DNA of 64,000 nt, from positions 993,506-1,057,505 of the forward strand of contig FN649747.1 in the NCBI GenBank assembly GCA_000310025.1, read 5' to 3'. A program made the translations under genes and the position numbers. Shown here one piece after another: positions 15,587-31,184 of this stretch. How positions within the stretch are numbered: the stretch's first letter is position 1; each line of letters begins with the position of its first letter. The notes under the pieces were generated by a model, which worked only from the letters and a program-made list of their open reading frames with translations, was not told the origin of the DNA and did no database searches. This DNA comes from Ectocarpus siliculosus. Its lineage: Eukaryota > Sar > Phaeophyceae > Ectocarpales > Ectocarpaceae.

Positions 15587-18500
15587 TTATTGTGGTTGAA
15601 AATCGGAGATGGACGCTCGATCGACATGGCGGCAAGCGCGTCGCTCCAGGTATAGCCTCTTGACCCATTGAAACAACAGAAAATCGAAAACGTTCGCGTT
15701 GAGGACATCCGTCCACGCCTCGCTAGGTAAAGCTCCAATCGCGTGAATCGATTTCTTGTCGAGTCGCACAGCTTCGTGCTCGTCCGGCAGCCACTGTGCG
15801 AGCAAGGAGAAGAGTAGCAGGTGGGAGTGGGCCGCTGAAAAACGTTCCGGTAATCGATTGCGACATTTTTCAAACCTCGTGCTCTTTCTGCGTACTACTG
15901 CCTTGGCATCCATGGACAACGCTCCTACCGAAGGTTTCCCTGAAGTGCATAGCTTCAACCCTGGCGTGCGAACGCTTTGGCAACAAAATCCCTAACCTGT
16001 TTCCGTGGTAAGCTCCAGCCGAACGCCTCCTCCAATGCCCACATCTCGTCTTCGACAAATTCCAGCACAAGAACGAGGTTGAATCGTCTAAGGATATTCA
16101 TAGCAGATTTCAGGTCCTCCCAGGCGATCTGCACGACATCGTTGACAGGCAGGAACAAGATGGGGGCACCGCGGGTCGTGGCAGAGGGTTGCCTAGGTGG
16201 GATGGCGATACCAATTGAGCGTGACGGGCGGTCATTCCAGCACAAGGTTGCGGCAAACAGAATTCGCCGGCACGAGTAGCTCCCTTAACGCCCCCATCAA
16301 TAGGAAGAATGAACCTCGGCGGCCGTCAAGTTTCAAAGCCCTCTCACCATCCCCACAATGACCGATTCCATTCTGCGGCGGGAAGATATCCACTTACGTT
16401 TGTGATATGGAAAAGAACCGCTGACGTGCTGGGACAGCAGCAAATTTAAACTTGCACATAGGACCTGCCCGCATACCTGGTCTCCCCAGGTGTTAAATTT
16501 GTGGTAGCTCCACCACAAATCCCGGGCGTAGTTGGGCCGCCCGTCTCCGTCCACGCCCTGAGATCGATCAGGTGCAAATATGCAAATAAGAAACACCCGA
16601 GGCGTCATACGAGGAGCGGGGAAAAAAGAGAAGTAGGAAGCGAAACAGAAGCGATGCACACATGTTGAGGGAGGCCACTCATATGATATAGCTGCAGGGC
16701 AAGAACGCCACGCTCCCTTGGTAAATAAGAGCAACCTTGTTCACGTGCTCTTCGTACGAGATGACCGCCGGATAATTCACTTCAGCGCTTTTTGCACACA
16801 ATGTGTGGCGTCGTAGTAGTAGGAATACGCGTTCACGTTTTAAACGACCGACGTCGTGTTCATCCTATCGTCGACTATCGTGAAGTCGACACACCTCTGA
16901 GAAAGTATCGTCTCGTTGGGAAGACCGACCGCAGAAGGTTTTGATGTAGGCGTTGTCGCCCATCTCATCCTGTCTTATCTTCTTGTACCACCTGTAGTCA
17001 ATCCATGCCAGTTCAAGAGGCAGCTCAAACGTTTTCTCGCTTTGTATGCGTTGACCACCGAGTGTCGTACAAAACGAAGTGTTCAGCATATAACCCAGTC
17101 TACTTCAGATAAGTAGTGCATGTTTAGCTCTACCGCCCAGGGGCGAATCCCCACTGGACCACCGGGCGGCAAATGTGTCAATCACGGCACTCACAAGTCG
17201 AACGGCAAGAGCTCGCTGCCTGGCTTAGACCCGTCGCGGTGCTCCAAGTGCTCGAACCGATACTGACTGTACCACCGATCCACCGGATGTCTGAACGAGC
17301 AATAGGTTGTGGCGCAAGCACGTGAAATCGTGTACGCGCGTGTGTGTGAGTCCATCACCTGATTCGGGCTGCTTCCAATACTCCTGTGCTAGGCGTTATT
17401 TTCCCACTGACGAGGCACATCCCGTATTGTTGTGCGGAATTTCATGTCCTGTCTGCTATGTTGTTCGTGTACTACCACAACACTAACCGTAGACCTCACA
17501 TTTGCGGTTCTGGCTCAGAATCTTGACAGACTCTGGACGTTAGATAGAAACGTGAAAAGGCGAGGGGTGTTCTTTTCTCGTGCGAGTAGCAGCAAGCCGT
17601 TGTTTTTTCTCACATACCCGAAGATATGTTTCTCTTTCGGGTAACTATTGCTATTTTGTTATCTCCCAACTTGAAGAGCACAGAGACGTTGTGTAAACTG
17701 TCTCAGGCAGATTCAACACGTGTTTTCTATTGTAAAATGTGGCATGCACGTAATGTCCAAAATCACCGGCTCATCAGACAAATATCTTGGGCCTGTCAAG
17801 CACAGCATAGCAGCTGGCATCTTGCACTGAGGAAGGACGATTTCAAAAGTTGACTCGATTGTATGTGTCATGCCATACCTTAACGTTGTAGCAAAGATGG
17901 CCCCCTGTAGAGTGAGGTGCTCTATCGGTAAGACGTCCCACTCGTTGGACGTGAGGCGATAACCCTGGATCGTAACAATTGCCGCAAATACAACCAAATG
18001 CGCACGAGACCATGGCACAGGGCGCATTAACGGGGCAATGACTGAATAATGGAATGATTGAATATCAGGTTGGTTTTCCGTGTAAGTGCAGAATCCAAGG
18101 GCCACGGCGTCTCTTGTACAAGGGACAGCGTCACGAAACATCATCCGCGAGGATGAGCTACCGTGTGAAAGCCTGAATGAAGCCTGGTACGGTAACGATC
18201 CTCGCGAACACAAGGTCTCTCCCTCCTGGACCGACGGCGATACTATGTAGTTGATCGTGCGCATTCTCTTCATGTGGCAGCCATAAGCAAATCTGCCTCC
18301 CATTCTTTGTGACTCACATGCTTTTGCATACTTTCCAAGAAGAAGTCCTTGTCTGACCATGGAGGGGTCGCGGTGGAACCCCTGCCATCCGCCATACAGA
18401 AGTACCACGGTATTTCCGTTGCCGGCATATTCCTGCACAGCATTTATCAAACAGGGCATAGCTCGCTACGCGATCAACGGATTGTCGTCAATTATGCCGT

Positions 18501-21500
18501 AACGTGCGTGCTTGCTGGGATATTCAAAGCAGGCCAGAAGAACGAACACTGCAGGAGGTTGTCGAAATTTCCGACGACACAGTCTTATTGACTCTGGCAA
18601 ATGTGTCTAAGAGAGGCCAACAAGTTCAATGAAGAAAAAACACATCGGGGTTTAGTGGTGCTTGAGCCGAAATTGAACCATACGCATTTGTTAAATAAAA
18701 TGGGAGACTTACACAAGACGGAAGACTGTAACAGGAGGCCGCGGCGTGAATGTTGAAAAAAAAAACGACATCTGTTTTGGACATATTGGTGCACACGTCC
18801 TTACTAGTCAATCTTCATTGGCATTACCCTCTATGTATCGTAGACCATCAATCGTAGATATCGTATGTCTCGGTTCATACATAACGCATCTGTATGCGGA
18901 GGACTGCTGAGGCATTCTTCTGCCCAATGGATCGCGTATCTGTCACTCTCGCTGTAACATTCTTCTGCTCAAGGGATCGCGTATCTGTCACTCTCGCATG
19001 GACTTCTCTGGATAGTTTTGGCTTTTTGCTTTCCTGGTCTTCTCTAGGAACTGCCGTCTTCTTGACTTCTGCGTTGTCTGTGGATCTATCTGTGTGTCTT
19101 GCCAATATATCTTCACGTCTTTACACAGCACAAGACGTCCGCCTACCTCTGGTCTTCAACCGCTTGCGGTGCCAACCATCTCGACTAGCATCGAGAGGCA
19201 CAGCCTTACGGGTCTCCCACACTTTTAACAGTTTTCCCAAACGACCCATGGGTCACCCATGGGCATGCCTGCCCATGAAGTGCCCATGGGTGGCCCCTGG
19301 GTGACCCCTGGGTGTCCCATGGGAGTTTTATGAAAACTGTCCATAGTGTGGGAGATTGCAGCCTTACCCACGTATCAAGGGCATCTCAGACAATATCCAT
19401 AACAGGTTTTAGTGCGGGAGATTGCAGCCTTACCCACGTGTCAAGGGGATCTCAGACAATGTCCACAACAGGTTTTGAAGCCTCGACTGTGAGTGAGTGG
19501 AGGCCTGCAGCGACTGCGGCTCCTGCTGCTGTCGTCGAGTGCTATGGCGTGCACACACATCGTCTTCTACCATTCCACGCGGAGTTCCCTCTGATGAAAG
19601 TAGCTGTAACTGAACTCCCCCTGAGAAGAACTTTATGATGAAACGTTGATCGGCGAAACGGTGTAGTTGAAACGCGCCAAAAACACCGTCAGGTAGACGA
19701 TTGTCCTGTCTTTCCGTGGAAGGTGTCTCGTCCTTAGATGTGGCCAGAGACTCCCCCATAGCACTGGAGGAGAACCCGAACGTGGATGATTCGGATCCCT
19801 GGCGTTGTGCTAGGTGGGCGCTCCCGACGTTGTTGGAAGGCTGTAGTAGCGCTAGGTCAGCAGCCAGCCCCCGGAGCCCTTTCTGGTTATGGCACTACTG
19901 AAAGAGCTCCGGGGACTGGCTGCTAACCTAGCACTGCTACAGCCTTCCAACAACGTCGGGAGCGCCCACCTAGCACAACGCCAAGGATCCGATCATCCAC
20001 TTTCGGGTTCTCCTTCACCGCTATGGGGGAGTCTCTGGCCACCTCCCATGACGAGACACCTTCCACGGAAAGGCAGGACAATTGTCTACCTGACGGGTTA
20101 TTTTGCGCGTTTCAACTACACCGTTTCGCCGATCAATGTTTCATCATAAAATTCTTCTCGGAGGGAATTACGGCTATTTTCATCGGAAACAAGAATCATC
20201 TTCGACGCCATCATAGAGAAAAATGTCAACATCTTCAACGACATCTTCAAGAATTAACATCGTCATCATTAATGTGTATGTTTCTGGTCTTTAGTTTGTA
20301 TGAATCAGTTTACTCTTTCAGTCATTCACTTGTCGACTTCGCATCATCGCTGGTTGAATAGCCACCTAGGCTAGGGTTGGACTTATTGTACATTGCTTGT
20401 GCAGGACAACAAGAACGCTACTCTGCAAGCGCATAGATGTACATGAAATGATACCAAGCACATTCGCTGTGTACCTTAGTGGCATGGATGGATTAGTTTC
20501 TTTTACTTTTGTTTCACGTAGACTGGATTCAATGTAAGTTCATTGAGGGGGAGTGTTATGAAAGTATTAGCTCACGTCCTATACTAGTCAATGTTCACTA
20601 GCATTGCTCTCTATCGTAGATCATGCATCGTAGATATCGTGTGTTTCGATTAATACGTAACGCATCTGTATGCGGAGGAATTAGCTGTAGCATTCTTCTG
20701 CTCGAGGGATCGCGTATCGTTCACTCTCACATGGACTTCTCTGGATAGATTAAGCTTTTAGCTTTCCTGGTCTTCTCTAGGAACTGCCGTCTTCTGAACT
20801 TCTGCATTCTCTGTGGATCTATCTGTGTGTCTTGCCAGTTTCCAGTATATCTTCACATCTCTACACAGCACAAGAAGTACGCCTACTTCTGGTCTTCAAC
20901 CACTTGCGGTGCTAACATCTCGACTAGCATCGAGAGGCACAGCCTTACCCACGTGTCAAGGGTATCTCAGACAGTATCCACAACACCATCCAAATTTCTC
21001 TGGTATTCTCTACAGCAGTACACAGTCCTGCGTCAGAAACCTACGTAATATTGATGACGAATGGCGTTAGGGAATCAGAGTGTGATCCCCTGTGCAACGC
21101 TATCGACGGCCAGGTACCACACACACCACACCAATCCACGGCCGACCACAAGCATGAGCAGCTGTTTTCATTCATTCCTGCTAAGCCGGGGTAGAGAGCT
21201 CAGTGTACAGCTCATGAGCAGCAAGGCGACACCAGAGGAAAACAGGCCGTTCTGACCGTCGACATCCGAAACCGAATCCCCACCCACCATCATCAACAGC
21301 TCACCGTAGTGTCCTTCAACTTACCTGGAAGCCATGTCGCAGAACGCCGTTCCCCCCGCTTTCCTCAAGTGCTGATAGTAGAGAAACCCCTGTCCCGCTT
21401 TGAATGCTTCCTCGTTGTCATGATCTCGAATGTCGGGTAACGAAAATCGATCCGCCTCTCTATCTGGGCACTCGAACTTGTCAGGAGAGTCCACAGCTAC

Positions 21501-24500
21501 CTGCAGCGGGGAGTATATCACGGATGCGTTTCGTGTTGTCGCATGGAAATAATATTCACTGCGTAGTTCTTCTGCTTCAGCTTGAAGTGACTTAGAAGTA
21601 TGTGTCTCCTTCTGTCCTCTGTTTGACGTACCTCGGTACCATGTTTTCCAGAGCGACTATTGCGCGCTGTGTTGTATTCACAAATGAACGCTAGTGGTGG
21701 TATTCATGTTTCTCATACCCTTGCCGCATACAGTATTTATGTGCGCTTCTAATCACGTCGGTCATCTCGTATTCACGCACCCCGGTGCGAACTCTCCGTC
21801 CCCATACCAAACAAAAGAAACACATTTTCATCTTCTTCTTATCCTTCTTCACAACCGCGTGTGAACTGGCGCACAGGTACCATATTCGGGTTGTCATTAT
21901 TATACTACTGCCTGGAATATTACTGGTTCAAACATTATATCAGTACATGGTATATGCCCACACGTCCTCCCTTTCGGTGCGCTGTGAAAGCAACAAGCAA
22001 TACTTCTCGCCTTGAAAGGGTCCGTCTCCTGAAGTACCCTTGCCAGATCAGCGCGACTGTCGAGGCCGATAGAATGTAATCTCTCCACCAAGTCCCACCC
22101 GGTCAGCTCCTCCGGGATCTCAACCAACTTCTGCACGGGATTAGCCTGTGGTAGTGACTCGGGGCCTGGAACCTAGAGACACCACAGAGTGTATCAGGTG
22201 AGAATCAGGGAACCCATTAGGTCCGGCTTCATCCTCGATGTGCATCAGAAGCGAGCATGCGTGCGCAATGAATTCACACGCCCAATGCGTGTGCAATGAA
22301 TTCACACACCTTCCTACCTCAGCTTGCTCTATTCAAAAGAAGGATCAGACAGCAACCAATTCTGCTCTGGCTGCCCCTCAAGAAAATCAAGCGGCGAGTG
22401 CGCCAGGGAACATTCTACTGCCATTGAGGTGCCCTATACCGACCTCATCATTTTGGCAGGAGTAAACCAAATGGTAAAGCCGCCTCATGAGCTGCTCATC
22501 GACATCGTTGAAGCTGAGGGAGTCACTTGAGTAGCCTTCGCGACCGAACTTCGCATCAACCTCCTGGTCCATGTACCAGGCATTCACGACGATTCCTGAC
22601 GCAAGGCGATCTGCTGGGTCCAGAGGCATGTGTTGCCTGCCATCCCGATGAAAAGTCAACCAACCAGGGAAACCCAACGAGACCAGACGATGAGTCACGA
22701 CAAGCTGAAGCGACCAAGAGAAACAGTTGGTCGCGTGGCTCATAGGGCGCGCGTATAACCAAGGGTGCAGTACGGCCTTGTTTCGACCTTCGCTCGCAAA
22801 AGTTGTGCCGCACTTGTACATGCTGGATGGACAGCATGACTCGGTGCTACGAAAACGTATGTGTGATTGGCCACTGGTCCGAACTGGCGCCGATGACCCA
22901 GCAATGCGTTTTGGCCGAGTGCGTACACCTGCCCTGCAAAGACATCAAGTATCACAAAAAAAGAGGTTCTTACCCGAAGTGAGTTGCTGGCGTGAAGGGG
23001 TGGAATCGCTCGCGCCCGAGAGTATCTCGAGTATCGAATGCGCTGACGCCGTTCTTCTTCAAGCACATAGAAACCTGATCATACAGAGCACCCCCATATA
23101 CACACCCCAGGAGCGTGGTTCGGTTAGCAAAGCTAGAAGCGAAACTGTTGTGTAGTCCCCATTTGCAGATTTCGTGTGAGCACAGAGTGTCACCTCGGGT
23201 TCGAAATCCTAGCCTACGTCCTCCAGTACACTCACCCACTGGTATGTGTATAAGAGCTATTTGTGGCTGGTGCTGTTTACGATAGGCATGTCCGAGGAGG
23301 AGACGGATCCGAAAAGACGATCACCCGCATCTGTGCAATCACATTGTGCTGCACGGTATGTAGACTGCCTTGCATCTCCTTTTCTCTTCTTGTTTTGAAT
23401 CTCTCTCTCTCTCTCATCGGTGATTCGCTACACAACAGCCTTCTGCCTCACCAAGAGATCTTCCCATGGAGTTTTCCTATGGGGCTGGCAATCGTCATCG
23501 TCGAGGTGGCTCGCCAAGAGGCCCACCGACGCCTGGTTCAACACGTATGAGGCCCGTCCGTTGTTGTACATTCGATGGTCCTCGCCAAACACACGTAGAC
23601 GTCTTCCTAGGTACATGGGGTTGGCCCCGCCGTTTTTGATGCCCCCGCCTGCGCTCTTGACCTCATCCGATAGCAGGTACTGCGGGTCGACCGGGTAGGG
23701 GCGGAACAAAGCGGATACTTCGTGTTCCAAAGGCAAGTACTAGAAGCTCGAGACTTGCTAGATATGTCGGGTCTGGAGATGTCGTTGTGAAAGTAGGAAG
23801 ACTCCCCAGCCATCAGGCACCTCCTAGCTTCTATGGGTCCAAGCAGCACAGATTTGGGGTAGGACAGCTGCAAAACGCTGCCTATGACTCCCGCGAGGGA
23901 CGGCGTCATTGTGGGATGAACCCTCGTACCCCCATGAGGAACACCAAGCAGGGTAGAGGAGGGAGAGGGAAAATGAAGAGAAAACGGAGGGAATGTTTTG
24001 AACAAAGGAAGCATCCGTGACAAATGTACTACGGGGAAAACGACAATAGCGCGGACAACCGTTTTCCTCAGTGCAACGCCATCATCGACCACCGCAGACC
24101 CTGCTGAACGTCTCGGGAAGAGAACAACAAGGCATCTATTTTCACACCGAAACCATTGCACCGCACCATGCTATGATGCTCGGCACACCTTGCGCAGGTT
24201 CTCCGCGATAAGGAAGAGGTCGTCGCCCCCGAGGATGAACCAGTCGAAGTCCTCTTTGTAGTGGAAGTTGATGTACTTCCAGATGGCTCTGCTTTTCTGC
24301 CACATGTTGCCTTCCTCCTCGAGGCCCTCTCGCTTGATCTTGAGCCTGGTGGGCGTCACACCAACAACACCTATTAACTAGCGGCGTAGTCCCTTGGGAG
24401 AAAGCGACAAACACAGTTGCACTGTTCTACCCAATACCTTGCTGTTTCTGTCAGGTTCAGCATAGTTGTAGCCCGTACTTTGTTCCTGTATACGACTCAT

Positions 24501-26984
24501 TTACTGCATCTGCTATTGCTTCTGGAGTTCTACCTGGCTGCACACAAAGGCCAGGAAAAAGCCCTCACGTGCTAAGTTCTTGGTCAGTTTTGTCGCTGAA
24601 GGCCACGAATCCGTCACAGTGGGACGCCCATGTCTCCTTGATCGCCTGCAGTTCAGCACCCCATTGCGAGCGCATCACACAAACCCCACAAGACGGAGCA
24701 ACAAAAATGGAGGAAAATTATGCCGGGGACGTGCCAGGCGAAGGGTGACTGGATTTGCTCGCGTCAGTTCCCACGTTAGTTTCTGGATGCCGATCTCTCC
24801 CCGACATTTAATATGCCTACCAGTTGTATGGGACGAAGAGGCGGAAATCATTTCATATGGTTGCAGGGGAACACTCGTGACTCATGAGGCTTATGGTCGT
24901 GCATGTATCTTTGAAAATCCCTTCCAAAAGCGCATTCTAAATTGAACGTCACTGGCATGCACATGAACCCGTGCCAAAAGGACAGGGGCGATCGTAGGAC
25001 AGCCTCCTATCAGACGCAATATTGATTTCAACCAACAACCCGCCCCACCTTGACGTTGGTGCGATGGTTCTGATGGCGGGTGGATATACCGCAGAATATC
25101 CTTGGCGCAGTCTTTGCGGCACCCTCCCAAACACGGACCTGGGCCAAAAGTTTCTGGTGGTCATCGTTCCTGCGGAGATGTGGACGACGGCGAATCAACA
25201 TGGATCGAAACGATTGAGGCACATTCTACAAATGAAGAAACAAACAACATTGGACGCGGTACCCCATGTGGCACCCTTCGGGGTACATCAAAGCTGTGTG
25301 GAACGGACAAGACGTGGGTTGGCCCATCAGGCGCGTGGGTCTAACAAAAACGGCCCAGTTGCCAAGAACCAAACGTCATGACGGGGGGGGTTGAACTCAC
25401 CCGTCGCACGCCCCAGGAAGATCACTCTGCGCTGACAAGAAATTGGTCCCGTCGATTTTTTCTTGGTAGTCCCAAGGCTGCCCGACTATCTGTGTATCTT
25501 CTGAGCCGGAAATAGGTGGGGATCCTCGTCCAATCGGCTGATCGAGAGCCTCGTATTGGCATCCCTTGTACGCTGTAATCTCGAATACGCTCATTTTCAA
25601 GAAACCTCCACAAATTTCGCCTGTGGTGGTGCCCGCGCACAGAAAGTCGCATTCGCCGGCCGCGAGCTCCTCACCGTTCTGGTTTAGCTCGGGGTGAATC
25701 CCGCACCAGCACTTTTTTATTGATTCGTGGGGGATCGAGGAGGAAGGCCAAGGGCGGGTGCCCAAAAAGCAAGTTGCAGGGCAATAGCTCGGTGTGCGGG
25801 AAGTACACACCTCCATATGTCGGATAGGGCTACGCCGCACACCAAAGTTCGTCCACGAACGTACTTTAGCGTCGAAATTCCTCAGTCGAGGCGCTACTTT
25901 CACGGCACCAACGAAACACGCGAGACGTAGCAAGTATACACGAATACACAGAGAAGAAAAAACGTCTACCGTAGGGTCCAAGCAAACATCATTGACAACG
26001 CAACGCTTTCTGCATAAACAGCGAGGAGTTGAATACTCTGTGCCAGCAGTCAGTCCTGTTGCGTCCGAATGTACGAGTTACAAAATTGTATGAGGCCTCG
26101 ACAACACCGAGCAAGTATCTCGGAGAAGTCTCCGAAACGAGTAATGATATTTCCCGCAGGTCTTTTAACAGACCTGGACTTCCTGTCTGTGAAGAATGAA
26201 CCGCAAGAGCTCAGGTTCACGGTCGCGTATGTGCGAGGAGATGTACTTCTATGGCGCTACCTTGTCGAGGGTCTAGCTGGAGTTGAGCAGCAACATCCTT
26301 TGAAACACTTTGGTAGCAAGTAACAGCAGTAGGCTGGACACACCGCGAACTGCAATATTTAGCGTTGGCCCGGGGGGGGGGTGAGATCTAGCAAGGGTTC
26401 CAAAAAACCTCCAGCTACCTATTGCTCCTTCCAACCTTTTAGGCCGTTCTTGCTTTGTGTTGGGGGTACTTCAACAGGAGCTAATTTGTCAGGTAGACTT
26501 CGATACATTTAGCAAACTTGAAAACATGCACATTTACCACCCACCTCGCCGGAGTATTGCATGCCAAAGTGGGTGTTCACCCCGTCGTCGCAGAACATGT
26601 AGCACATCTGAGAGTGAAAACCGCGATGTTCATCGAGACCGGATATTATCCACCACTAGCATGCAGTGTACTCCGTTGAGAGAGACAAGTGACACACTGG
26701 AAGAACCTCAAGATCACAATTCTCGAAACAAGAGCCATGACGGGAACCTAGATGTGTTCCGACGAAAACACTGCTGCAGCCCAGACACATGAAGAAAAAG
26801 AATTCCGTCGTCCCCAGCGGCTAAACCGAAGTATGGGATTGAATGGCCACTTTGGACAAGCGTTGATGCTTACCTCCGCAGACATTGGATTATGCTGGCC
26901 CCTCGAATTGAGTATCCTCTTGCCGACCGAGTCGGCATAGCAGCCAACGAAAGAAAAATCAGCTGGGCAGCCTGCTAGGCCGAT
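15587..26984 (-). CDS. WSC domain - GT31 core-1-like galactosyltransferase - sulfotransferase fusion
   Basis: Exons in transcript order: about 26984-26874 and 26607-26545 and 25711-25401 (WSC); 25169-25049, 24645-24569, 24345-24189, 23679-23452, 23074-22974, 22636-22440 (GT31); 22165-22011 (linker); 21500-21325, 17964-17879, 16991-16895, 16557-16477, 16128-15997, 15793-15587 (sulfotransferase, TAA stop). The WSC part shows FVGCYADS, MSAE-MCYMFC and CWCG with an ICGG end. GT31 shows KETWASHCD, MWQKSRAIWKYI, the DxD-like GGDDL, ANPMYLGRR, YNNG and FDTRDTLGRERFHPF, as in C1GALT1. The sulfotransferase shows a PAPS-loop HLRKAGGT, NEWDVLP, DNAYIKTFCG and a C-terminal DVLNANVFDFLL segment. Phases agree at every junction from the first WSC exon to 21325; one exon is missing between 21325 and 17964 (phase 2 meets phase 0), possibly near 18.2-18.3 kb. 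The linker exon seems to end at a GC donor. The start codon and any signal peptide were not found. Golgi-lumenal action is inferred. Confidence 0.75.
19242..19330. repeat. CCCATGGG-rich imperfect repeat patch
   Basis: Within about 90 bp the self-complementary core CCATGGG/CCCATGGG or its variant CCCCTGGG occurs roughly eight times. It sits inside the left LTR of the intronic element and is absent from the right LTR, so it expanded after insertion or was copied in. Confidence 0.6.
19590..20187. repeat. Large imperfect inverted repeat, arms about 295 bp
   Basis: The left arm runs from about 19590 to 19885 and the right arm from about 19890 to 20187. They are reverse complements with scattered mismatches; matching landmarks are TTTATGATGAAAC with GTTTCATCATAAA, and CCTTCCAACAACGTCGGGAG with its complement. 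The spacer is only a few bases around 19887, so the transcript of this intron could form a very long hairpin. Confidence 0.85.
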
Positions 26985-29392
26985 CGCAGAAGGAACGAAC
27001 AGGGCGCACTCGAGTGGTGCGGTCTGCATGTAGCGGGAGACAGCTTGAATATTCGACTTGTAGACGTAAGTCATATGAACCCGTCCTCCTGCGCCTCTCA
27101 ACGTCAAACACGGCCATTTATAAGCTGGAGCGGTGCAGCAATTGATTTACTCACGGACGAGACAACGATAGGACAAACACGCATCGAACCCTTACAACAG
27201 GTAGAAAAAGATCTCCAATCGGCGCGGGTCTACGTCCTGACAGAGTAGACGGTGCGGCTGCACGGCGCCGGCAACACACAACACAATGGGATCACCGAGC
27301 GTGCTGGACGGACGCTAAGGAACGTCGTTAGATGTTTAATGCATGGCAGAAAACCACCAGAGTTTCTATGGGGCGAGTTGTGCTTGCTGCACGGCGGTAC
27401 ACATCACGAATCGCCTGCCGCATGTGCATCTGAACAATGAGACTCCTTACTACTGGATGTTTGGGAAGCAAGCTTCGTTACGCCATCTACGGGTCATCGG
27501 ATCATCAGCGTTCGTGCACGCCGAAACGTACAAGTCTAAGCTTGCGAATCGAGCTTGGCCAGGAATACCGGTTGGGTACAGCCCCAACAGCAATGCTTAC
27601 CGGATTTATAATCCAATGGACGCGACCATGCCGCCGGTCATACCGACAATTGAGGAACTGCGCGACTACGAACCGGAAGAATTGTCGATTTCCTCGGATG
27701 TCGTCATACTCGGAAACGAGGGGGAAGCGACAGATAATTCGCAAAATGAGGAGGATTACTTCAACAAGAACAAGAACAAGAAGGAGAAGAAGGAAGTACA
27801 ACTCGCACGAACTTGCGAAGCAGCGGAAGGAAAATGGATAATCAACAAGTAACAAACAGCAAACACCAGCAAGCGGAGCTACGGAGGCTACCGCCATGGA
27901 ACAAACTAGCCGCTTTTGTCAACCAAGATCAAGATCAAGGTCAAGATATAAGAATCAAGACTCCTTCAGCTGGAGAACCTGTCCGGTCGCCAGCATCAAT
28001 ACCTATACCAACTACATATCAAGAAGCCATGAGGTCTATGGATGCCGATCAATGGAAAGCAGCTAGGGACAAGGAAATGAGGAGCTCAAAGATCATGATG
28101 TGGCGGATGCAATTCCAATTCAGAGCCTATTCCTGGAGCTAACCCTACTGGATCAAGGTGGTTATACACAATGAAAGCACCCGGAGTAATGAAGGCAAGA
28201 CTCATCGTGCAAGGCTGGGGACAACGGCATGGAATCGACTGTGGTGGAACCTACGCCCCTGCGAGTCGATTTAGCTCACAGCTAGTATTAGTGGCGATTG
28301 CGGCGGAAAGAGGATACGTTGTGGAAACCATGGACGTGGTGACCGCATTTCTTTAAAGCAACGTGGAGGAAGAAGTGTATGTTCGTGAAGCTAAAGGATA
28401 CGAAATAATGGATGAAGTTACGGGACTACCGCTGGTGATGAAGCTCAAGAAAATCTTATACGGATTGAAGCAGCGCCCTCGGAACTTCGGCAACGCATTT
28501 GCCAAAGGAATAAAAAAAATCGGGTTTACTTCTCTACGGAACGACCCGTGCGTATATGTGTACGGTACTCGACCGACATATGCGATACTATGTGTGTACG
28601 TGGACGACTGCACACTAGCTGGAAAGACACCGAGCGTGGTTCAAGATTTGAAGAAACAGCTATCGGAAAAATTCAAGACGACGGACGGAGGACCAGCGGA
28701 ACTACTACTAGGAAGGAAATTTCTCAGAGCGACGGAGAAATCACCGTGAGCCAACACAAACATGTGATGAACATACTGGACAAGTATCAAATGACGGACT
28801 GCAAACCAGTGGCGACTCCAGGATGCGGACCAGAAATTGAACAAGAGCCGGAAAATGCTATATATTTAACTGACGAGGACAAGAAACTCTACCAGGGAAT
28901 AGTCGGAAGTCTATTCTTCTTGACTAACACGACAAGATGGGAGATTTATATGCCGTGATGATCCTGTGTAGAGGGATGAACTAGCCTACCAACCAACATA
29001 TGGTCGGAGCGAAGAGAGTGCTGCGATAGGTTCGAGGATGCCCGGATATGCCACTAAAGTTCAGGAGAGGACAATGGGACCTGAAGTGCTACTGTGACGC
29101 GAACTCCGCTGGGTCGAGCGAGACACTCCAGAAACGTTCTTCTACAGGATACCTGTTCATTCTAGCAGGAGGCGTCATCAGCTCAATCCAGTGTACATGC
29201 GGAGATAATCGCGATGTCTACAGGAGCGAGGGAAGCCATTATCTGCAAGGTGTACTGCCGGAACTTGCAACATCCCGCTTCATTCATATTCCACGGGACA
29301 CTGAGCACAGGGGGAAACTCTATGTTTCGAGGCCGCAGCAAGTTCATCAGCACGAGATACTGGCTCCTTAGACAAAATGTGAACCAGGGGAA

Positions 29393-30042
29393 TATTGTGC
29401 TGAAGTTTGTGAGGAGGGAAGAGCAGCTGGCAGACATACTGACGAAGCATCTGGACCGAGTTCAATTCATCAAGCTGAGAAGGATGGTTCAAGAACATGG
29501 AGGATCTACGAAATAGGAGACTTCGTGCGGCGGAACTGCAGATGTGATGGTTTTAGATGTACACCGACAACATCGGAGAGGGTCGGTGGTACGGTGACTC
29601 GAGACATCACGCGCAAAGACGTCCGAGACATCATACGCTGAGACAACAACGACCGAGACAGGACAACCTGGACGAGACTACACCGAGACAAAAACGAGGG
29701 CAACTACTGAAACAATGGCATCATCAGAACATGGATCTGGGCTTATTTCGAGTGATGAAGAAATTCAAGTCAGGCAAGAGCATCATTACGACGAAGACAA
29801 CAACGGCGAAGACAGCAACGACATGCCAGATGGGTCAATGTGTGTGGAGATTGATCATGTTACTCTAGTAGGTACATCTGAAACCGTAACATCTGCAGTT
29901 CCGCCGCACGAAGTCTCCTATTTCGTAGATCCTCCATGTTCTTGAACCATTGTTCTCAGCTTGACGAATTGAACACGGTCCAGATGCTTCATCAGTACGT
30001 CTGCCAGCTGCTCTTCGCTTCTCACAAACTTCAGCACAATAG
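29393..30042. repeat. Inverted repeat of the Copia polyprotein 3' end, arms about 173 bp
   Basis: The left arm (29393-29566) is the 3' end of the Copia polyprotein; the right arm (29870-30042) is a diverged reverse-complement copy that on the minus strand encodes LADVLMKHLDRVQF and the same last residues. About 300 bp separate them, rich in CGAGACA/CGAGACATC words. This is either a second element joined tail to tail or an inverted duplication made during integration. Confidence 0.85.
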
Positions 30043-30477: not shown

Positions 30478-31184
30478 TGTATAATGCAGGAGCACGAATG
30501 GAGGAAGTACTAGACCTGCAGGATTTGTGCGGTAGATATAGAACAACGATGAGGTTGTTGAAGCACACGTAACATTGCATTGGGGGCATGTTGGAATACA
30601 GAGCATTAATGCTGTAGGTTGTGTGTAGTAGAATAGATGCAGCTGTATGATTGCTGCATGCAATCATACGTAGATGCGTATGATCAGTGACGTTTGGTAG
30701 AACGTAACATGTGGTGACGAGTCCTACCGAGGAGCTCAAGAATTAATTGATGGTTGATCAGAGGATTGTAATTGTAGCGAGATCACGAGGTGTTGCGAGC
30801 CCCATTGGGCTCACTGATGCGTATGATCAGTGACGTTTGGTAGAACGTAATATGTGGTGACGAGTTCTACCGAGGAGCTCAAGAATTAATTGATGGTTGA
30901 TCAGAGGATTGTAATTGTAGCGAGATCACGAGGTGTTGCGAGCCCCATTGGGCTCACTCCCCCCAACTGTCCCCCAACATCTCACCTCTGCAAGTAAGCT
31001 GTGAAGCGAAGAAGACCGAAAAGAAGTACAAGTCCCAGAAGCGGCATTCAGCAACAACATCGACTTCGGTCACTGCCTCTACACACTTCGGTCCTGAACA
31101 TCACACAGACTTCTGTCTGGAACTGCACAAAGGCTTAACCGCCTGCAGGCGACCCTTGGGTACAGGGCACCTCGACACTACACA
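30478..31184 (+). repeat. 3' LTR of the Copia element
   Basis: It starts TGTATAATGCAGGAG directly after a purine-rich tract (ATGGGGGCG) and ends CTCGACACTACACA, giving TG...CA borders over 707 bp. A reverse-complement copy at 50044-50608 has the same two ends but is about 142 bp shorter; the difference equals one unit of the internal tandem duplication. Confidence 0.75.
30673..30958. repeat. Two-copy 143-bp tandem duplication inside the LTR
   Basis: Copy 1 is 30673-30815 and copy 2 is 30816-30958. Both run from GATGCGTATGATCAGTGACG to CCCCATTGGGCTCACT and differ at only a couple of positions (for example AACATG versus AATATG), so the duplication is recent compared with the decay of the polyprotein. 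Confidence 0.95.

What the first reader, a model, noticed from the sequence alone, without database searches (positions are those of the whole stretch)
15587..26984. One gene appears to fuse a WSC domain, a core-1-like GT31 galactosyltransferase and a sulfotransferase
Seen: minus-strand exons carrying WSC, GT31 and sulfotransferase motifs follow each other, and splice phases agree at every junction from the first WSC exon to 21325, including the linker exon (22165-22011) between GT31 and sulfotransferase; no stop codon intervenes. Known: C1GALT1-type GT31 enzymes and PAPS-dependent sulfotransferases are normally separate Golgi proteins; WSC is a carbohydrate-binding Cys-rich domain. Inference: a single chain could bind a wall glycan, add a hexose and sulfate it.
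Basis: partly seen in the sequence, partly recalled or inferred. Interest (0 to 1): 0.85.

Follow-up and report, generated by a model that had tools for sequence, protein, structure and literature searches.

The report
WSC-galactosyltransferase gene beside a sulfotransferase
The sequence holds a gene that joins a sugar-binding WSC domain to a core-1-type galactosyltransferase, followed closely by a sulfotransferase; the claimed fusion of all three is possible on paper but rests on a splice junction that chance would supply, and relatives in the same genome carry the two parts at separate places.

Summary
WSC plus C1GALT1-like GT31 as one gene is well supported: WSC precedes GT31 at 4 of 6 GT31 loci of the genome. 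The extension into the sulfotransferase is not supported. The last GT31 exon runs to an in-frame TGA (22389-22387), and 4 of 4 paralogs in which that exon was found also end it in their own stop. The "linker exon" belongs to the sulfotransferase family: it recurs before 3 of 3 other sulfotransferase copies, on contigs without a GT31 match. Fusion needs a donor inside the GT31 exon; 4 of 12 donor/acceptor combinations stay in frame, as chance predicts, and the best donor is weaker than 48 of 52 homology-supported donors. Fusion is not excluded: the window sulfotransferase has an intact, constrained frame but no convincing start exon of its own. The window GT31 has also lost the metal-binding "C-His" and both Cys of the adjacent pair that C1GalT1 has, so galactosyl transfer by this copy is doubtful. 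Most likely: two adjacent genes, the second with its 5' end lost or not found.

The parts
26874..26971 (-). WSC exon e1 (first part of WSC); an upstream first exon is expected but was not found
   Evidence: homologous exon in L005, L006, L007
26545..26607 (-). WSC exon e2
25401..25711 (-). WSC exon e3 with the conserved inter-domain stretch IVGQPWDYQEKID
   Evidence: the stretch recurs in L005, L006, L007 and, without a WSC found, in L008
25049..25169 (-). GT31 exon G1
   Evidence: 121 nt here and in 4 of 5 paralogs, modelled as 166 nt in L004
24569..24645 (-). GT31 exon G2 (77 nt in 6 of 6 loci)
24189..24345 (-). GT31 exon G3 with GGDD in place of the C1GalT1 ADDD motif (157 nt in 6 of 6 loci)
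23452..23679 (-). GT31 exon G4, with the xED catalytic-base motif (WED)
22974..23074 (-). GT31 exon G5 (GRERFHPF motif; 101 nt in the 5 of 6 loci where found)
22387..22636 (-). GT31 terminal exon G6 with in-frame TGA at 22389-22387; C-His position is Asn
22011..22145 (-).
21325..21500 (-). Sulfotransferase exon S2 with HLRKAGGTAFC
18318..18432 (-). Sulfotransferase exon S3
17879..17964 (-). Sulfotransferase exon S4
17195..17290 (-). Sulfotransferase exon S5 with RHPVDRWYSQYRF
16895..16991 (-). Sulfotransferase exon S6
16477..16557 (-). Sulfotransferase exon S7
15997..16128 (-). Sulfotransferase exon S8
15587..15793 (-). Sulfotransferase terminal exon S9, TAA at 15589-15587

Best explanation
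Two adjacent head-to-tail transcription units. Unit 1 is a WSC plus C1GALT1-like GT31 gene that ends at the TGA at 22389-22387; it is one of six related loci found in this genome, four of them on this contig (shown). Unit 2 is a member of a four-locus sulfotransferase-like family whose known coding part begins with the linker exon (shown). At C455 a type-II membrane-anchor exon upstream of the linker is a tentative proposal (inferred). In the window the sulfotransferase has an intact body, but its first exon is missing or lies elsewhere. If expressed, unit 1 would be a secretory-pathway glycosyltransferase-like protein with a glycan-binding WSC module, probably with altered or no transferase activity because its metal site is damaged; unit 2 would be a PAPS-dependent sulfotransferase acting on wall or glycoprotein glycans (both inferred from domains and motifs).
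For: GT31: 4 of 4 paralogs with a detected last exon end in a stop 11 to 30 codons after the YxC motif (window: 22), and the only sulfotransferase matches on C22, C11 or C17 are those of the window. Exons G2, G3 and G5 have the same length wherever found. Sulfotransferase: four loci found in the genome. The linker recurs before 3 of 3 others, and none of those three contigs has a GT31 match at E up to 0.001. At C455 one ATG frame with a hydrophobic segment and a phase-0 GTGCGT site lies 1.4 kb upstream of the linker, fitting its phase-0 start. Window bases 22900-22114 show no DNA similarity to the three sulfotransferase loci. The best junction donor is weaker than 48 of 52 supported donors, and the tails of two GT31 paralogs without a sulfotransferase contain stronger GT sites (L006 6.5 bits, L007 5.8 bits).
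Against: No convincing start exon for the window sulfotransferase: the linker exon has no in-frame ATG, and a scan of 26980-22165 gave two ATG frames as hydrophobic (1.74, 1.75) as the C455 proposal (1.62), at 26738 with only a GC site (GCTAGT) in phase 0 and at 25250 with none. Only 214-241 bp separate the GT31 stop from the linker, little room for a promoter, first exon and intron. The sulfotransferase frame is intact over 374 codons with dN/dS 0.22-0.23 against its paralogs, so it was in use until recently. The C455 anchor is one of four hydrophobic ATG stretches in the 1.9 kb scanned there; three others score 1.59 to 2.23, one of them with a phase-0 GTAACG site, and it has no second copy in the genome.
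Confidence: 0.62

Rival explanations
1. A true three-part chain (signal or anchor, WSC, GT31, stem, sulfotransferase; 823-832 residues from e1 on). The sulfotransferase lost its own first exon and took the GT31 gene's 5' end by splicing from inside the old GT31 terminal exon.
For: A fused frame to the final TAA exists for exon end 22444 with exon starts 22172 or 22145. The sulfotransferase is intact and constrained without a convincing start exon of its own. The gap of about 0.27-0.3 kb fits the intron sizes of the locus. One supported donor (L006, AAG|GTCGTA) also has C at +3.
Against: 4 of 12 combinations in frame is the chance rate; the donor is weaker than 48 of 52. Five of the eight introns upstream are phase 0, so phase agreement is cheap. 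None of the other 3 sulfotransferase or 5 GT31 loci shows the pairing. Part of the sequence behind the donor aligns with coding sequence of L006.
Confidence: 0.26
2. The sulfotransferase first exon lies upstream of the WSC-GT31 gene, which sits nested inside the first sulfotransferase intron.
For: Would explain the intact sulfotransferase and the absent start exon; the region upstream of the WSC exon holds transposon fragments.
Against: No match to the proposed C455 exon in the window beyond chance scores. It needs a first intron of more than 4 kb, against 1.3 kb for the C455 proposal.
Confidence: 0.08

Closest known systems
Core 1 beta-1,3-galactosyltransferase C1GalT1 (CAZy GT31; PDB 7q4i)
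   Same: Profile match over 267 positions, E 2.8e-38; xED base, GRERFHPF-like region
   Different: N-terminal WSC module; first Asp of DxD is Gly in 6 of 6 loci; the window copy also lacks the C-His, the next Tyr and both adjacent Cys
Heparan sulfate 6-O-sulfotransferase (PDB 5t03)
   Same: Two collinear weak stretches, at the PAPS loop and near the C-terminus
   Different: Whole-sequence E 0.85, not significant, and ranked below a designed protein (7uek, E 0.013); no Pfam family matches at E up to 10 for 4 of 4 members
WSC-domain proteins among brown algal cell-wall proteins (PMC8307928, passages)
   Same: WSC domain at E 1.2e-10; WSC-like matches are many in this genome (56 exon matches at E up to 0.001)
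   Different: Here the WSC is the N-terminal module of a GT31 gene
FK-GFPP bimodular enzyme of brown algae, clustered with a sulfotransferase gene (PMC11468063, passages)
   Same: Carbohydrate enzymes joined in one protein, with a sulfotransferase gene nearby
   Different: Other enzymes; there the sulfotransferase is a separate gene

Membership tests
GT31, C1GALT1-like | Sequence profile match to C1GalT1 | tested here: met
   E 2.8e-38 with a 6-locus profile
GT31, C1GALT1-like | DxD metal motif (Asp181-X-Asp183 in Drosophila C1GalT1) | tested here: not met
   GGDD aligns with ADDD; first Asp is Gly in 6 of 6 loci
GT31, C1GALT1-like | xED catalytic base (Asp255) | tested here: met
   WED in 6 of 6 loci
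GT31, C1GALT1-like | C-His metal ligand (His324) | tested here: not met
   Asn in the window; His in 4 of 4 paralogs with the exon
GT31, C1GALT1-like | Galactosyl transfer | not testable with these tools
   needs expression and assay
WSC domain (PF01822) | Pfam score above the gathering cut-off | tested here: met
   41.9 bits against 27.8
PAPS-dependent carbohydrate sulfotransferase | Pfam sulfotransferase family match | tested here: not met
   0 of 4 members match any Pfam family at E up to 10
PAPS-dependent carbohydrate sulfotransferase | 5' phosphosulfate-binding loop and 3' phosphate-binding motif in order | tested here: inconclusive
   HLRKAGGT(A/G)FC and RHPVDRWYS in 4 of 4 loci; motif labels recalled; weak alignment to HS6ST, E 0.85
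Single WSC-GT31-sulfotransferase protein | Continuous reading frame across conserved splice junctions | tested here: inconclusive
   frame possible in 4 of 12 combinations; junction not seen in paralogs; stop in the unspliced exon
Single WSC-GT31-sulfotransferase protein | Transcript spanning the junction | not testable with these tools
   no RNA data held

The most novel reading that the evidence does not exclude
A recently formed chimeric Golgi protein in which a degenerate C1GALT1-like GT31 domain has become a non-catalytic, Cosmc-like or glycan-binding scaffold between a WSC module and a working sulfotransferase, so that the chain targets sulfation rather than building and sulfating a sugar.
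Probability: 0.14. Interest if true: 0.75.

Novelty: new variant of a known kind. Interest (0 to 1): 0.36.

Why it matters
The WSC plus C1GALT1-like GT31 gene family is a testable candidate for glycoprotein galactosylation in what looks like a brown alga; PMC11468063 (passages) counts on average 9 GT31 genes per brown algal genome and only speculates on their role. If the sulfotransferase were truly joined, it would put sugar recognition and sulfation in one chain; the listings showed no report of that, in a library of open-licence papers only.

Tried and rejected
Tried without result: Pfam for the sulfotransferase; Pfam Sulfotransfer_2 against the genome, one match elsewhere (C10); Fringe family against the genome, nothing rang even in the controls, so uninformative; relatives in viral contigs and genome contigs, none confirmed; the proposed C455 anchor exon in the window (chance scores) and in the genome (only itself). 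Papers: searches returned none; of 5 papers, 2, 1 and 13 I opened only PMC11468063 and PMC8307928, and PMC9065035; of these three I saw passages.

Considered and rejected: that the linker exon joins GT31 to the sulfotransferase by design (it was found only with sulfotransferases); that WSC-sulfotransferase is an ancient fusion (C21 and C330 copies sit behind WSC exons, but no WSC match lies in the 3.4 kb fetched upstream of the C455 linker, and the block shared by the three starts only about 0.4-0.5 kb upstream of the linker, whose middle part was cut from view); that the upstream transposon abuts the WSC exon (repeat matches start about 27197, some 220 bp away, a search that skips very common words).

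Corrections to my notes and limits: the second notebook entry says GT31 paralogs stop 5-24 codons after YxC; one search gives 11-30, used here. In one search the models of L004 and L008 upstream of G1, and several small exons between e3 and G1 or after G6 in L005, L006 and L007, are spurious fillers and were not used. In some searches GT31 exon ends of L004-L008 were picked by hand; L001 and L003 donors were left out of the 52 as near copies, and L008 was left out of the site counts for the other loci. dN/dS values are pairwise Nei-Gojobori counts with dS often above 1, hence rough. Structure prediction was not run: the stated rule asks for proteins that the DNA gives letter for letter, and spliced chains seemed not to fit.
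Full report
What is there. The window is G000:C22:993506-1057505 of a 189.5 Mb, 492-contig genome. On the minus strand lie nine exons of a WSC-GT31 gene (26971-22387, a first exon upstream not found) and nine exons of a sulfotransferase-like gene (22145-15587); coordinates and splice sites are. WSC scores 41.9 bits in Pfam. The GT31 part matches Pfam Fringe in 6 of 6 loci, and a profile of the six hits Drosophila C1GalT1 at E 2.8e-38. The sulfotransferase part matches no Pfam family in 4 of 4 copies; its name rests on two motifs (labels recalled) and a weak, non-significant collinear match to heparan sulfate 6-O-sulfotransferase (E 0.85), which ranked below a chance-like match to a designed protein (E 0.013).

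WSC and GT31 are one gene. GT31 was found at six loci: the window, C22:889k, C22:913k, C22:923k, C11:324k and C17:83k. WSC exons precede it on the same strand at 4 of 6 (window, L005, L006, L007). L008 shows only the stretch that follows WSC in exon e3 in the 2.8 kb fetched upstream, and in L004 no WSC was found in the 4 kb fetched upstream. Exons G2 and G3 have the same length in 6 of 6 loci, G5 in 5 of 5 where found; G4 is 228 nt in 4 of 6, 225 and 231 in the others. dN/dS of the window GT31 against the five others is 0.12-0.19.

The GT31 gene ends before the sulfotransferase. Its last exon continues to TGA at 22389-22387. In the four paralogs where that exon was found (L004, L005, L006, L007; not found in L008) the frame also stops, 11 to 30 codons after the conserved YxC (window 22). 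The only sulfotransferase matches on C22, C11 or C17 are those of the window.

The linker exon belongs to the sulfotransferase. It matches four places in the genome at E up to 1, each about 0.5-0.7 kb before a sulfotransferase loop exon. The family has four loci found: the window, C21, C330 and C455. No GT31 match lies on C21, C330 or C455. C21 and C330 are near copies (dS 0.05) behind WSC exons of which the last WSC looks cut short; C455 shares with them only a block that starts about 0.4-0.5 kb upstream of the linker. At C455 an upstream ATG frame with a hydrophobic segment and a phase-0 donor could be the first exon of a type-II membrane enzyme, but it is one of four hydrophobic ATG stretches in the 1.9 kb scanned, with hydropathy 1.62 against 1.59-2.23 for the others, so it is only a proposal.

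How strong is the claimed junction? Splicing from inside the GT31 last exon to the linker can preserve the frame in 4 of 12 donor-acceptor combinations, the one-in-three expected by chance. The best donor, GAG|GTCGGT, scores 4.3 bits; 4 of 52 homology-supported donors score lower and 48 higher. Five of the eight upstream introns are phase 0, so phase agreement carries little information. The tails of two paralogs without a sulfotransferase hold stronger GT sites.

What speaks for fusion. The window sulfotransferase is intact over 374 codons with usable splice sites at its 8 introns (one GC donor), and dN/dS is 0.22-0.23 against its paralogs at dS 1.1; it has been working until now or recently (inference). 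Yet the linker has no ATG, only 214-241 bp separate the GT31 stop from the linker, and the scan of 26980-22165 found two hydrophobic ATG frames (26738 and 25250; 1.74 and 1.75) with no GT donor in phase 0. So the sulfotransferase either recently lost its start, uses a start that I did not recognise or that lies upstream of the GT31 gene, or is read from the GT31 gene. I put fusion at about one in four.

In C1GalT1 the metal is held by Asp181, Asp183 and His324, Asp255 is the base, Tyr325 contacts the pyrophosphate and two adjacent Cys form a disulfide (PMC9065035, passages found). All six loci read GGDD for ADDD, and WED keeps the base. Among the five loci with the last exon, the window alone has Asn for His324 and Asp for Tyr325; at the Cys pair it has Gly-Tyr, C22:889k Gly-Cys, the other three Cys-Cys; and it has Arg in the NGG loop where 5 of 5 others have Gly. 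It deviates at 20 of 175 sites where the other four full-length loci agree; those four deviate at 9 to 15 of 164-170. Galactosyl transfer by this copy is therefore doubtful; its constraint suggests a retained fold.

Novelty. PMC11468063 (passages) reports on average 9 GT31 genes per brown algal genome, and the word WSC does not occur in its main text. Searches listed no paper whose title or abstract start reports WSC joined to GT31 or to a sulfotransferase in algae; most of those papers were not opened, and the library holds open-licence papers only. The WSC-GT31 gene family is a new variant of a known kind; the three-part fusion remains unproven.

Noticed in passing
window 27197-29516, +: Fragment of a copia-like retroelement (RVT_2 and a retroviral SH3-like domain) lies about 220 bp upstream of the first WSC exon; an inverted copy of its end follows at 29872-30041.
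   Followed up: partly
window 18831-20990: Insertion inside a sulfotransferase intron: direct repeats around 18831-19176 and 20607-20916 (three blocks, 86-92%) flank inverted repeats; the intron is 2.9 kb here against about 0.5 kb in the three paralogs.
   Followed up: partly
L001, L003 (C21:2588000-2597999, C330:1-10000): Two near-identical sulfotransferase copies (dS 0.05) sit behind WSC exons of which the last WSC looks cut short; C330 is a 22 kb contig and may be an alternative haplotype of C21.
   Followed up: partly
L005 (C22:908000-917999): The WSC exon e3 of this GT31 paralog was modelled with a frameshift, a possible decaying copy or a missed short intron.
   Followed up: no
L007 exon G1, L002 exon S2, window exon S1: GC donors (GCGAGA or GCGAGC) in 3 of 52 homology-supported introns.
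   Followed up: no
window 30673-30958: Tandem pair of 143 bp units, 99% alike.
   Followed up: no
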